A model generated the notes under the pieces. That model ran no database searches and was not told the origin of the DNA. It saw nothing but the letters and a program-made list of their open reading frames with translations. Of a DNA stretch of 64,000 bases, positions 17,893 through 26,700 are shown piece after piece. The DNA comes from Arabidopsis thaliana. Taxonomy: Eukaryota; Streptophyta; Magnoliopsida; Brassicales; Brassicaceae. The first letter of the stretch is position 1. Each line of letters opens with the position of its first letter. The stretch lies in assembly GCF_000001735.4 (NCBI RefSeq), contig NC_003076.8:372001-436000 (forward strand), given 5' to 3'. The translations under genes were made by a program, and so were the position numbers.

Positions 17893-17963
17893 TGCACCAG
17901 CCGGGAATTGAACCCGGGTATGTACCGTGGCAGGGTACTATCATGCCACTAGACCACTGGTGC
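17893..17963 (-). tRNA. tRNA-Gly (anticodon GCC)
   Basis: A 71 nt minus-strand cloverleaf. The acceptor arm GCACCA pairs with TGGTGC and is followed by discriminator A. The D-arm/A-box reads TGGTCTAGTGG. The anticodon loop in CCCTGCCACGG places GCC as anticodon. The T-arm/B-box is GGTTCAATTCC inside an ACCCGGG...CCCGG-type stem. There is no intron. Short T-runs follow the 3' end on the minus strand, fitting RNA polymerase III termination. The B-box deviates by one base from GGTTCGANTCC, which is common and tolerated. Confidence 0.96.
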
Positions 17964-21326: not shown

Positions 21327-21562
21327 AAAATATATGGTTGATAAGAATTCACATCAATTTTGATTAATTTAGGGACTATAAATATGTTATATACAATAAT
21401 TAATCTATGCATCTTTTTTAATCATTGTGATTGTTCTAGTTATAATAAAATATGGTTGATCACAATTCACAACAATTTTGATTAATTTATGGACTATAAA
21501 TTTGTTAACATAATTAATCTAGGCATCTTTTTAAATCTTTGTGATTTCTCTAATTATATAAT
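21327..21562. repeat. Imperfect tandem duplication of about 120 bp
   Basis: Two adjacent copies, about 21327-21446 and 21447-21562. Both run through ATATGGTTGAT, AATTCACA, CAATTTTGATTAATTTA, GGACTATAAAT and TTAATCTA.GCATCTTTTT in the same order. Divergence is visible as substitutions and small indels, so the duplication is not very recent. Confidence 0.75.
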
Positions 21563-21625: not shown

Positions 21626-21633
21626 CTTTGAGT
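21626..21633. repeat. Left target-site duplication of the hAT element
   Basis: CTTTGAGT directly left of the terminal repeat. The right copy at 22713-22720 is CTTTTAGT, a 7/8 match. An 8 bp duplication is the hallmark of hAT insertions. Confidence 0.6.
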
Positions 21634-21970
21634 TAGGGATGTCAAAATAGGTCAAAATTCATGGGTCAACTCAACTCAACTCAACCCATGAACCCTAATG
21701 AGTTGAAAATTTTGACTCAAATGAGTTGATGAGTCAAATGGGTTAATGAGTCAATTGGTTTGATGAGTAAAATGAGTTGGGTTGTAATGGTTAATGGTTT
21801 CAATGGTTTACCCAATTAACCCATCAAATTTTATAAAATTGAATTAAACCAACTAAAATCTCTAAACCAATGCCAATTTAAGTTTAACCAACACATCTAA
21901 ACAAATTTAATAAAATTAATATTTTTCCAAATTTCTTAAATATACAAGCGATGAAATTGAGAAAAAATAA

Positions 21971-22463
21971 ATTCGTAATTTTTCCACCAAAAAACATAAA
22001 CCCGTGATTTTCTCGCCAAAAACGTAAACCCGTGATTTTCCCGCCAAAAACGTAAACCCTTAATTTTCCCGCCAAAAACGTAAACCCGTAATTTTCCCAC
22101 CAAAAACGTAAACCCGTGATTTTCCCGCCAAAAATGTAAACCCGTGATTTTCCCGCCAAAAACGTAAACCCGTGATTTTCCCGCCAAAAACGTAAACCCG
22201 AGATTTTCCCGCCAAAAACGTAAATCCGTTATTTTTTCGCCCAAAACGTAAACCCATGATTTTTCCGTCAAAAACGTAAATCCGTGATTTTCCCGCCAAA
22301 AACGTAAATCCGAGATTTTTTCGCCGAAAAGCTTAAACCCGAAATTTTCCAGCCAAAAACGTAAACCCATCATTTTCCGGCCAAAAACGTAAAAAACTAT
22401 AATTTTCCTGTCAAAACGTAAATCCGTGATTTTCCGTACCTAAAACGTAAACCTGTAAAAAAT
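21971..22463. repeat. 28 bp minisatellite with E2F-like sites
   Basis: About 17 head-to-tail units of consensus CCCGTGATTTTCCCGCCAAA plus AACGTAAA. Seven units carry the intact core TTTTCCCGCCAAAA, which fits the plant E2F/DP consensus TTTSSCGC and reads as a near palindrome. Other units have point changes (CTCGCC, CCCACC, TTCGCC, CCAGCC, CCGGCC). Conservation is best in the middle and decays toward both edges. Minus-strand ORFs seen across it are by-products of the repeat: because 28 is not a multiple of 3, the reading frame shifts with each unit. Confidence 0.9.
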
Positions 22464-22589
22464 AAAATCCGTAAATATCTTAAGTTTGATGATAATGAAT
22501 TAATAATGATAATTATTTATTATTGTTTTATAATAATAATTAATTAAATTATTACTTAAATGGGTTAACATCTCAAACCATTAAATTAA

Positions 22590-22649
22590 ATGAGTTATAG
22601 GTTGACCCAACACATTTAACAAAATGAGTTGGGTCAACCCATAACTCAT
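22590..22649. repeat. Near-terminal inverted repeat (hairpin)
   Basis: Two 22 bp arms, 22590-22611 and 22628-22649, are reverse complements with one mismatch and a 16 nt loop. The core arm is GTTGACCCAAC. It lies inside the right subterminal part of the hAT-type element. Confidence 0.8.
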
Positions 22650-22720
22650 TTATTCTTAAACTCATTTGATTATAAGTTGAGTAGAGTTGGGTTATCCATT
22701 TTGATATCCCTACTTTTAGT

Positions 22721-23753: not shown

Positions 23754-26700
23754 ATGGCTGATGCATACGAGCCTTATCATGTTCTTCAACAAAGCCGGCG
23801 AGACAAACTTCGTATTCCATCTCTCGATTCCCACTTCCACTTTCACCCTCCTCCTCCTCCTTCCTCCGGCGGCGGAGGTGGCGTCTTTCCTCTCGCTGAT
23901 TCCGATTTCCTCGCAGCCGGTGGCTTTCACTCCAACAACAACAACAACCACATATCTAACCCTAGCTACAGTAATTTCATGGGATTTCTCGGTGGCCCTT
24001 CTTCTTCTTCATCCACCGCAGTCGCCGTCGCCGGAGATCATTCCTTTAACGCCGGACTTTCTTCCGGAGACGTTCTTGTCTTCAAACCCGAGCCTCTATC
24101 TCTATCTTTGTCCTCTCACCCTAGACTCGCTTACGATCTAGTCGTTCCCGGTGTTGTTAACTCCGGATTCTGTAGATCTGCCGGTGAAGCCAACGCCGCC
24201 GCCGTCACCATCGCGTCTAGAAGCTCTGGTCCTCTCGGACCTTTCACGGGCTACGCGTCGATTCTTAAAGGATCAAGGTTCTTGAAACCAGCACAGATGC
24301 TTCTTGATGAGTTTTGTAATGTGGGTCGTGGGATTTACACCGACAAAGTCATCGACGACGATGATTCTTCTCTGCTTTTTGATCCGACGGTTGAGAATCT
24401 CTGCGGTGTTTCTGATGGCGGCGGAGGAGATAATGGAAAGAAAAAATCAAAACTCATCTCCATGCTCGACGAGGTATACAATAACATGATCAATTCTAAT
24501 CTCTTTAAATTATTGAAATCTGTAAATTTTCTTTAATTATTGTCTATACTTTCTTACAAGTATGTGAATTATTGTGTTAAATGTTCACAGTTTTTGGTCG
24601 GTGTCCTTTGGAATTGGAGACAAAATGTGTTAAATGATATGTCTCTTAAAAAGATCTTCCTTGGAAAATGAAACTCCTTCAAAGCCATTTTAAAATTATA
24701 TGATATTTTATTTAATTCATTATAATACCATATGTTAATTAAATTAATGTTCCCTACGTTTTGCATGAATAGATGATGTTATAGCGTCCATTTTAATACA
24801 TTATATAAATTACAAGCTTGCCATCTTCATGCTGATTTTTAATAGAATTTTAAGGTTATACTAAAGTAAGGATAATATTATCTTGAGGAAGTAACTTTAT
24901 ATAGAGCTTCCTTAGCTCTTGATCTGAATTTGTGAATTAGATTCTTCAAATCTTAGGGGTATAAACATTAAGTGATAAAAAGAGAACGTCTTCTTTATGA
25001 AAGGAATATATGCATTATATGATCTTAAAGCTAGGGACTTAAAGATTTTAATTAGTTTATTCCGAGGTATATAACATACTTTTTGAGTGAGGAAATAATG
25101 TATAAATTTATAATCACCCATTTTATTATGTAAGTGGGGGAATCTAAAAACATTTCCATGTGACGTTTTGAAGGTTTACAAGAGGTATAAGCAATACTAT
25201 GAGCAGCTACAAGCTGTGATGGGATCATTCGAATGCGTTGCAGGTCTCGGGCACGCTGCTCCGTACGCTAACTTAGCCTTGAAAGCATTGTCTAAGCATT
25301 TCAAGTGTTTGAAGAATGCTATAACGGACCAGCTTCAATTCAGCCACAACAACAAGATCCAACAACAACAACAATGTGGTCATCCGATGAACTCTGAGAA
25401 TAAGACTGATTCTTTAAGATTTGGAGGAAGTGATAGTTCTAGAGGCTTATGTTCTGCTGGTCAAAGACATGGATTTCCTGATCATCATGCTCCTGTTTGG
25501 AGACCGCACCGTGGCCTACCCGAACGTGCTGTTACTGTTCTAAGGGCTTGGCTCTTCGATCATTTCTTGCATCCGTAAGTAACCCTTCTCGCCATATAAA
25601 TGCTTTTGAAAGTTGTTGGATTCGAGTTTGAACTTGGTTCCAACAATTGATTAAACTAAATGCAAACGTTTAATTGATCATGAACCAAATTGTATATATA
25701 TGCTTGTGAACAATAGCTTTATATGTGTGTGTCAGTGTGAATAAATATGTGTGTATCGAAGTGTATTTTTACTTGGAAGTATGTTTTAGATGGGACATGT
25801 CGACTGCTTGTTTGTTTCCCAAACTTGGAGATGTCGTGTTGCAAGCGTAATTATGTGTCTATATATATGTGTATGTTAGTATATACAATGATATATTAAA
25901 TTGTTGTTGTCTGTGTCTTTTGTTGCAGTTATCCAACAGATACAGACAAACTCATGCTGGCTAAGCAGACAGGTCTCTCCAGAAATCAGGTTTCACTTCT
26001 GATATCTTCAGTCTTCTTCTTTTTTCTCTTTCCATCTTTTCTTGTTCACAATTTAACAAATTTCTTGCTAATTAAGCATGCACATAGTCACATAGATAAA
26101 TATATGCTTTTATGAAATGAGTTTCTGTTGTCGGACAATAATTATATGTTTTAAATCTTTTCACATATATCATTAGTATAGTAACTATGTTATAATTTGG
26201 TTTATTAGGTTTGAATAAGTGTTACACTTTTGTTTTTGAAAATTTATCCGTTGGTGATAATGAATAATTTAGGGATTTTCTATCGCTTGAGGGTTATTAA
26301 TTTATTATGGTAAAATGTTATTTTAGGTATCGAATTGGTTCATAAACGCAAGAGTTAGGGTTTGGAAGCCGATGGTGGAAGAGATTCACATGCTGGAGAC
26401 TCGACAATCTCAGAGATCTTCTTCTTCCTCTTGGAGAGACGAACGTACTAGCACCACCGTCTTCCCTGACAACAGCAACAACAACCCATCTTCGTCCTCG
26501 GCACAGCAAAGACCTAACAACTCATCTCCGCCTAGACGGGCACGAAACGACGACGTTCATGGCACAAACAACAACAACAGCTATGTAAACAGTGGGAGCG
26601 GCGGCGGTAGTGCGGTTGGTTTCTCGTATGGAATTGGGTCGTCGAATGTGCCGGTGATGAATAGCAGCACAAACGGAGGAGTGTCTTTGACGTTAGGGCT

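What the first reader, a model, noticed from the sequence alone, without database searches (positions are those of the whole stretch)
21634..22712. hAT-type element carrying a dense array of E2F-like binding sites about 1 kb upstream of REPLUMLESS
The element has 14/15 matching terminal inverted repeats and a 7/8 matching 8 bp target duplication. Inside, a 28 bp unit is repeated about 17 times, and seven units keep the intact TTTTCCCGCC E2F core. Spread of E2F sites by mobile elements in Brassicaceae has been described. Here the array sits roughly 1.1 kb upstream of the start codon of a meristem regulator, so it could bring cell-cycle factors near REPLUMLESS or act as a sink for E2F. The regulatory effect is inference.
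Basis: partly seen in the sequence, partly recalled or inferred. Interest (0 to 1): 0.72.

Follow-up and report, generated by a model that had tools for sequence, protein, structure and literature searches.

The report
Ordinary SIMPLEHAT2 transposon upstream of REPLUMLESS
A worn, non-coding copy of a common Arabidopsis jumping element that carries a row of E2F-like sites happens to lie about 1 kb in front of the REPLUMLESS gene; the element and its E2F sites are a known phenomenon, and no effect on the gene has been shown.

Summary
Window 21634-22712 is a 1,079-bp non-autonomous hAT element: TIRs 14/15, TSD 7/8, 17 units of 28 bp, 7 exact TTTTCCCGCC. It belongs to a family with about 77 recognisable left ends and 83 right ends; of 37 full-length copies cut out, 22 have a perfect 8-bp duplication. 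Its right terminus matches the published 'Simplehat' siRNA probe, so it is SIMPLEHAT/SIMPLEHAT2, a known RdDM target. A 4,037-bp relative with the same ends and hAT transposase domains has only about 4 units, so the long arrays belong to the non-coding derivatives. E2F-site spread by such elements is published (Henaff 2014, seen through reviews). This copy is typical: 7/17 intact cores against 287/585 in the family, about 4% arm divergence. Better conservation of the core than of the spacer is weak and depends on the positions compared. Most likely it is a decaying passenger that may bind some E2F; an effect on REPLUMLESS is possible but unsupported.

The parts
21626..21633 (+). left target-site duplication CTTTGAGT
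   Evidence: 7/8 match with 22713-22720; 22 of 37 family copies have 8/8
21634..21648 (+). left terminal inverted repeat TAGGGATGTCAAAAT
   Evidence: 14/15 with right end
21634..21970 (+). left arm, with TGAGTCAA-type subterminal repeats
   Evidence: 40 scored genome matches at 94-100% (40 of 97 candidates scored); 17-bp repeat 21713-21779
21974..22453 (+). tandem array, 28-bp unit, 17 units, head to tail
   Evidence: TRF; phased units
22036..22297 (+). stretch holding the seven exact TTTTCCCGCC cores (starts 22036, 22064, 22120, 22148, 22176, 22204, 22288)
22464..22712 (+). right arm
   Evidence: 40 scored copies at 85-100% (40 of 90 candidates scored)
22587..22652 (+). near-perfect hairpin inside the right arm (31-nt arms, 4-nt gap)
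   Evidence: DNA fold -27.1 kcal/mol, z -10.6; 40 further opposite-strand matches of this stretch (80 matches in all)
22698..22712 (+). right terminal inverted repeat; the 25-nt end 22688-22712 matches the Simplehat probe with 3 mismatches, all C-to-T
22713..22720 (+). right target-site duplication CTTTTAGT
23754..24470 (+). first coding exon of the neighbouring gene (REPLUMLESS), end approximate; context, not part of the element
   Evidence: ORF, POX domain PF07526 E 1.7e-06

Best explanation
The feature is one decayed copy of the non-autonomous hAT family SIMPLEHAT/SIMPLEHAT2. The family looks like an internal-deletion derivative of a coding hAT element with the same ends, in which a small cluster of about four 28-30-bp repeats grew into arrays of up to about 28 units (inferred). 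It was pasted upstream of REPLUMLESS by a hAT transposase acting in trans (inferred), leaving an 8-bp duplication (shown, 7/8). The E2F-like cores came with the element (shown by the other copies) and are decaying roughly in step with the rest of the repeat. E2F proteins can probably bind surviving cores when chromatin allows (inferred from published E2Fa binding to such sites), but the family is normally silenced through 24-nt siRNAs (papers), and the copy most likely has little or no effect on REPLUMLESS (inferred).
For: 37 full-length copies, 22 with 8/8 and 8 with 7/8 duplications. Published 'Simplehat' probe = family right end: 23 exact and 83 within 3 mismatches genome-wide, 0 for the reversed control, this copy among them. 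4,037-bp relative at C4:2789604-2793640 with GGAAGAAG on both sides; its left 274 bp match this copy at 92% and its right 401 bp (part of the array included) at 80%; about 4.4 repeat units with 1 exact core; separate ORF pieces with zf-BED, hAT-like RNase-H and Dimer_Tnp_hAT. This copy is ordinary: 7/17 intact cores, rank 9 from the bottom of 37, family median 0.50. Core and spacer G/C positions are kept at 0.874 and 0.849 (most variable spacer position left out) or 0.877 (two left out). From papers, passages only: E2F sites amplified by hAT and other elements in Brassicaceae (PMC12595863; PMC13317346); SIMPLEHAT2 siRNAs depend on Pol IV (PMC6753494) and on Pol IV plus Pol V (PMC3335838); simpleHAT2 as RdDM-controlled locus (PMC4209038) and as silenced control (PMC8592841).
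Against: With every spacer G/C position counted the core is better kept (0.874 against 0.808), A/T positions likewise (0.990 against 0.968), and a per-copy test without position 27 favours the core in 25 of 36 copies (Wilcoxon p 0.015), so past constraint on the core is not excluded. At least three array types with different spacers share TTTTCCCGCCAAAA, though the search selected for TTTTCCCGCC. A review reports that in A. thaliana such elements lie near genes and vary between ecotypes, with a possible role in adaptation. No expression, methylation or occupancy data for this copy could be examined.
Confidence: 0.76

Rival explanations
1. The array is a live cis-regulatory module: E2F/RBR complexes bind the seven intact cores and tie REPLUMLESS to the cell cycle.
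For: Seven exact cores in a regular 28-bp array; all seven strict TTTSSCGC sites of 64 kb fall here; E2Fa binding to transposon-borne motifs is reported in a review.
Against: Cores lie 1.46 kb or more from the ATG, while E2FA/B/C/RBR bind mostly just upstream of transcription starts (PMC10477330, passage). 'REPLUMLESS' and 'AT5G02030' do not occur in the main texts of two E2F ChIP-seq papers (other gene names not searched, supplements not available). The copy is average for its family.
Confidence: 0.08
2. The copy acts on REPLUMLESS, if at all, as a patch of RNA-directed DNA methylation rather than through E2F.
For: SIMPLEHAT2 is a Pol IV-dependent siRNA source, an RdDM-controlled locus and a silenced control. 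15 of 22 arm substitutions of this copy are C>T/G>A, and its three mismatches to the siRNA probe are all C>T.
Against: That share is not clearly above the other 36 copies (374 of 710, summed; Fisher p 0.19, computed on 372 from rounded shares). Methylation of this copy was not examined. The element ends 1 kb from the ATG.
Confidence: 0.1
3. The repeats exist because they serve transposition (subterminal repeats bound by the hAT transposase), and the E2F match is incidental.
For: hAT transposases bind short subterminal repeats; Tag1 has L-AAACCC and R-TGACCC motifs (PMC3143072, passage). The unit contains AAACCC (11 in this array) and the arms contain TGACCC (1 left, 2 right). In the coding relative the array lies 3' of the ORF pieces, not in a promoter position.
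Against: AAACCC is not better kept than other 6-mers of the unit (0.54), and the coding relative shows no AAACCC in the 500-bp bins from 2000 onward, where its array lies. TTTTCCCGCC is 27 times commoner in the genome than its reversed control (1,527 against 57).
Confidence: 0.06

Closest known systems
SIMPLEHAT / SIMPLEHAT2 (A. thaliana non-autonomous hAT family)
   Same: Right terminus equals the published Simplehat northern probe at 23 genome places and with 3 C>T mismatches here; the same ends, arms and array recur in 37 copies.
   Different: Only ordinary divergence seen (22 of 556 arm positions, a 9-bp gap in the right arm). The Repbase record itself could not be compared.
E2F-site-carrying transposons of Brassicaceae (Henaff et al. 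2014)
   Same: hAT element carrying multiple TTTTCCCGCC sites, in A. thaliana, near a gene.
   Different: The original paper is not held, so whether this locus is listed there is unknown; occupancy here untested.
Tag1 / Ac subterminal repeat organisation of hAT elements
   Same: hAT ends with short repeats inside them; TGACCC in the arms.
   Different: Here the long array is internal and asymmetric, of 28-bp period, with an E2F-like core; transposase binding untested.

Membership tests
hAT superfamily | 8-bp target-site duplication | tested here: met
   7/8 here; of 37 copies 22 have 8/8, 8 have 7/8, 1 has 6/8, 6 have 3/8 or less
hAT superfamily | short terminal inverted repeats with TAGGG/CAGGG-type ends (type recalled) | tested here: met
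   TAGGG...CCCTA, 14/15; family 11-15 of 15
hAT superfamily | related coding element with hAT transposase | tested here: met
   C4:2789604-2793640, zf-BED, hAT-like_RNase-H, Dimer_Tnp_hAT
SIMPLEHAT2 | right-end sequence of the published Simplehat probe | tested here: met
   3 mismatches of 25 here; 23 exact places in the genome
SIMPLEHAT2 | agreement with the Repbase record over the full length | not testable with these tools
   no Repbase or TAIR transposon annotation on hand
SIMPLEHAT2 | source of Pol IV-dependent 24-nt siRNAs | not testable with these tools
   reported for the family, not for this copy
MITE (strict sense) | non-coding, short (usually under about 800 bp; limit recalled), high copy number | tested here: inconclusive
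   no Dimer_Tnp_hAT match in the element among 112 genome places; dozens of copies; but 1,079 bp, family range 694-1,392 bp among 37
E2F-site-amplifying transposons | matches to the E2F consensus within the element | tested here: met
   7 TTTSSCGC, 7 exact TTTTCCCGCC
E2F-site-amplifying transposons | E2F binding in vivo | not testable with these tools
   reported for the class in a review; no ChIP data on hand

The most novel reading that the evidence does not exclude
The insertion put a seven-site E2F/RBR platform into the REPLUMLESS upstream region, so that in A. thaliana, unlike relatives without it, a meristem and fruit patterning gene senses the cell cycle, while several array types in different transposons were kept E2F-competent by selection on the elements.
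Probability: 0.06. Interest if true: 0.75.

Novelty: already known. Interest (0 to 1): 0.27.

Why it matters
The case shows how a striking transcription-factor array next to a well-known gene can be explained by family membership: the sites came with the transposon. It gives one concrete, testable locus for the published idea that transposons spread E2F sites. It also adds a coding relative with a short repeat cluster, which suggests that the array lengthened in the non-coding derivatives.

Tried and rejected
Chance array: rejected by shuffles and by the family. E2F array as the transposase gene's promoter: in the coding relative the array lies 3' of the ORF pieces, so unlikely. Excess C>T as a mark of methylation specific to this copy: not clearly above the family. 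Conservation of core against spacer: the size of the difference depends on which variable positions are counted, so it is used neither as support nor as disproof. A second array type near C1:56010 was scanned for TIRs with an 8-10-bp duplication; none found by that simple scan. Paper searches for SIMPLEHAT2 with E2F (one paper held both terms, incidentally; none), REPLUMLESS with E2F, with transposable elements or with an upstream regulatory element listed no paper on this locus; these are listings, not readings. Henaff 2014 and one review are not held. Presence/absence among accessions and the orthologous site in relatives could not be tested: no other plant genome was on hand.

Full report
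What was checked. The window is C5:372001-436000 of a 119.66-Mb genome in 7 contigs. Size, contig lengths and gene content fit Arabidopsis thaliana (my recognition; no call names it). The element at 21634-22712 has 15-nt terminal inverted repeats with 14/15 matches and is flanked by CTTTGAGT/CTTTTAGT (7/8). Tandem Repeats Finder finds 17.0 copies of a 28-bp unit at 21974-22453. Seven units keep TTTTCCCGCC. TTTSSCGC occurs seven times in the 64 kb on both strands together, all inside the element; the looser WTTSSCSS occurs 33 times, 17 inside. Shuffles of the element give 0.0035 exact cores on average.

What it is. Searches with the left and right arms each scored 40 places, of 97 and 90 candidates (lower bounds). 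A left-end pattern with up to 2 mismatches has 88 matches against 0 for the reversed control; 11 of the 88, by eye, are right ends read in reverse, leaving about 77. A right-end pattern of 25 nt with up to 3 mismatches has 83 against 0. From 60 loci (L009-L068) I cut 37 distinct full-length copies; 7 loci gave no complete element and 16 repeated a copy already taken. Of the 37, 22 have an 8/8 duplication, 8 have 7/8, 1 has 6/8 and 6 have 3/8 or less. Lengths are 694-1,392 bp, and the arrays have 4.4-28.6 units. All but two of the strict E2F matches in these copies point the same way.

Name. The 25-nt right end TGGGTTACCCATTTTGACACCCCTA is printed as the 'Simplehat' northern probe in PMC3189211 (passage). 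It has 23 exact genome matches, and this copy's end matches with 3 mismatches, all C to T. SIMPLEHAT2 siRNAs depend on Pol IV (PMC6753494, passage) and on Pol IV plus Pol V (PMC3335838, passage); simpleHAT2 is named an RdDM-controlled locus (PMC4209038, passage), and SimpleHat2 is used as a silenced control (PMC8592841, passage). That the probe named Simplehat and the family SIMPLEHAT2 are the same is inferred; the Repbase record was not available.

Origin. Among 112 places with a hAT dimerisation domain, compared by eye with the end matches, one (C4:2790262-2790513) lies between a left end and an exact right end 4 kb apart; a second, looser case (C1:14075938) was not followed. The 4,037-bp element on C4 has GGAAGAAG on both sides. 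It matches this copy over its left 274 bp (92%) and right 401 bp (80%, part of the array included), and has about 4.4 repeat units with one exact TTTTCCCGCC. Its ORF pieces match zf-BED, hAT-like RNase-H and Dimer_Tnp_hAT. So the common non-coding copies look like internal-deletion derivatives in which the repeat cluster lengthened. The opposite, shrinkage in the coding copy, is not excluded. The array in the coding copy lies 3' of the ORF pieces, so it is not where a transposase promoter would be.

Is this copy special? No. It keeps 7 of 17 cores; the 37 copies keep 287 of 585 phased units, median 0.50. Its arms differ from the column majority at 22 of 556 positions: 8/320 left (rank 14 of 37) and 14/236 right (rank 33 of 37). 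Private differences are 1/320 and 4/236. With a recalled rate of 7e-9 per site per year these would mean something like 1-6 million years, a rough guess. The core is at most weakly better preserved than the spacer (548 units with 6 or fewer mismatches): G/C positions 0.874 against 0.808 with all spacer positions, 0.849 without position 27, 0.877 without positions 22 and 27; A/T positions 0.990 against 0.968. A per-copy test without position 27 favours the core in 25 of 36 copies, p 0.015.

E2F sites in the genome. TTTTCCCGCC occurs 1,527 times against 57 for the reversed control; the 37 copies alone hold 298. 453 pairs stand 24-32 bp apart, start to start. At least three spacer types exist: this 28-bp unit, a 27-bp unit near C1:56010 and another 27-bp unit near C1:8278165. 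This fits the published account that hAT, PIF/Harbinger, MULE and Helitron elements spread E2F sites in Brassicaceae, that such motifs bind E2Fa, and that in A. thaliana they lie near genes and vary between ecotypes (PMC12595863 and PMC13317346, passages on Henaff et al. 2014; the original paper is not held).

Function. Nothing found here ties the array to REPLUMLESS. E2FA, E2FB, E2FC and RBR bind mostly just upstream of transcription starts (PMC10477330, passage). Neither that paper nor PMC12915602 holds 'REPLUMLESS' or 'AT5G02030' in the main text. As a sink the copy offers 7 of 1,527 sites. My best account is a decaying passenger with possible weak E2F binding. Methylation spreading and a true cis-regulatory role are less likely but open. 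A transposition role of subterminal repeats (TGACCC in the arms, a motif bound in Tag1 according to PMC3143072, passage) may explain why such repeats exist, but AAACCC in the unit is not specially conserved.

Limits. Only one plant genome was on hand, so presence/absence, age by orthology and binding could not be tested. The copies analysed were chosen by similarity to this copy, so they over-represent its close relatives. The phased-unit counts use my 28-bp yardstick, which itself contains the intact core.

Noticed in passing
L069 (C4:2789400-2793900), element C4:2789604-2793640, minus strand: Coding relative of the family with 8/8 duplication, BED zinc finger, RNase-H-like and hAT dimerisation domains in separate ORF pieces, and only about four repeat units.
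   Followed up: yes
C1:14068623-14076682 (+): A second hAT dimerisation domain (C1:14075938-14076144) lies between a left-end and a right-end match about 8 kb apart; possibly another coding or nested relative.
   Followed up: no
C1:8275620-8278956 (L032): Two different E2F-core arrays lie about 0.9 kb apart: the 28-bp SIMPLEHAT2 type and a 27-bp type with another spacer, 28 copies.
   Followed up: partly
window 21884-22373 (-): The array is open on the minus strand for 145 aa (and 91 aa in another frame); probably a by-product of a repeat whose length is not a multiple of three, so the peptide repeats every 28 residues.
   Followed up: no
window 22587-22652: Very stable hairpin in the right arm (z -10.6) that recurs in the copies scored; a plausible source of double-stranded RNA for silencing.
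   Followed up: partly
window 17893-17963 (-): tRNA-Gly (gcc) in the long intergenic stretch upstream.
   Followed up: no
window 21400-21558: Two 45-nt direct repeats, 87% alike, 114 bp apart, just left of the element.
   Followed up: no
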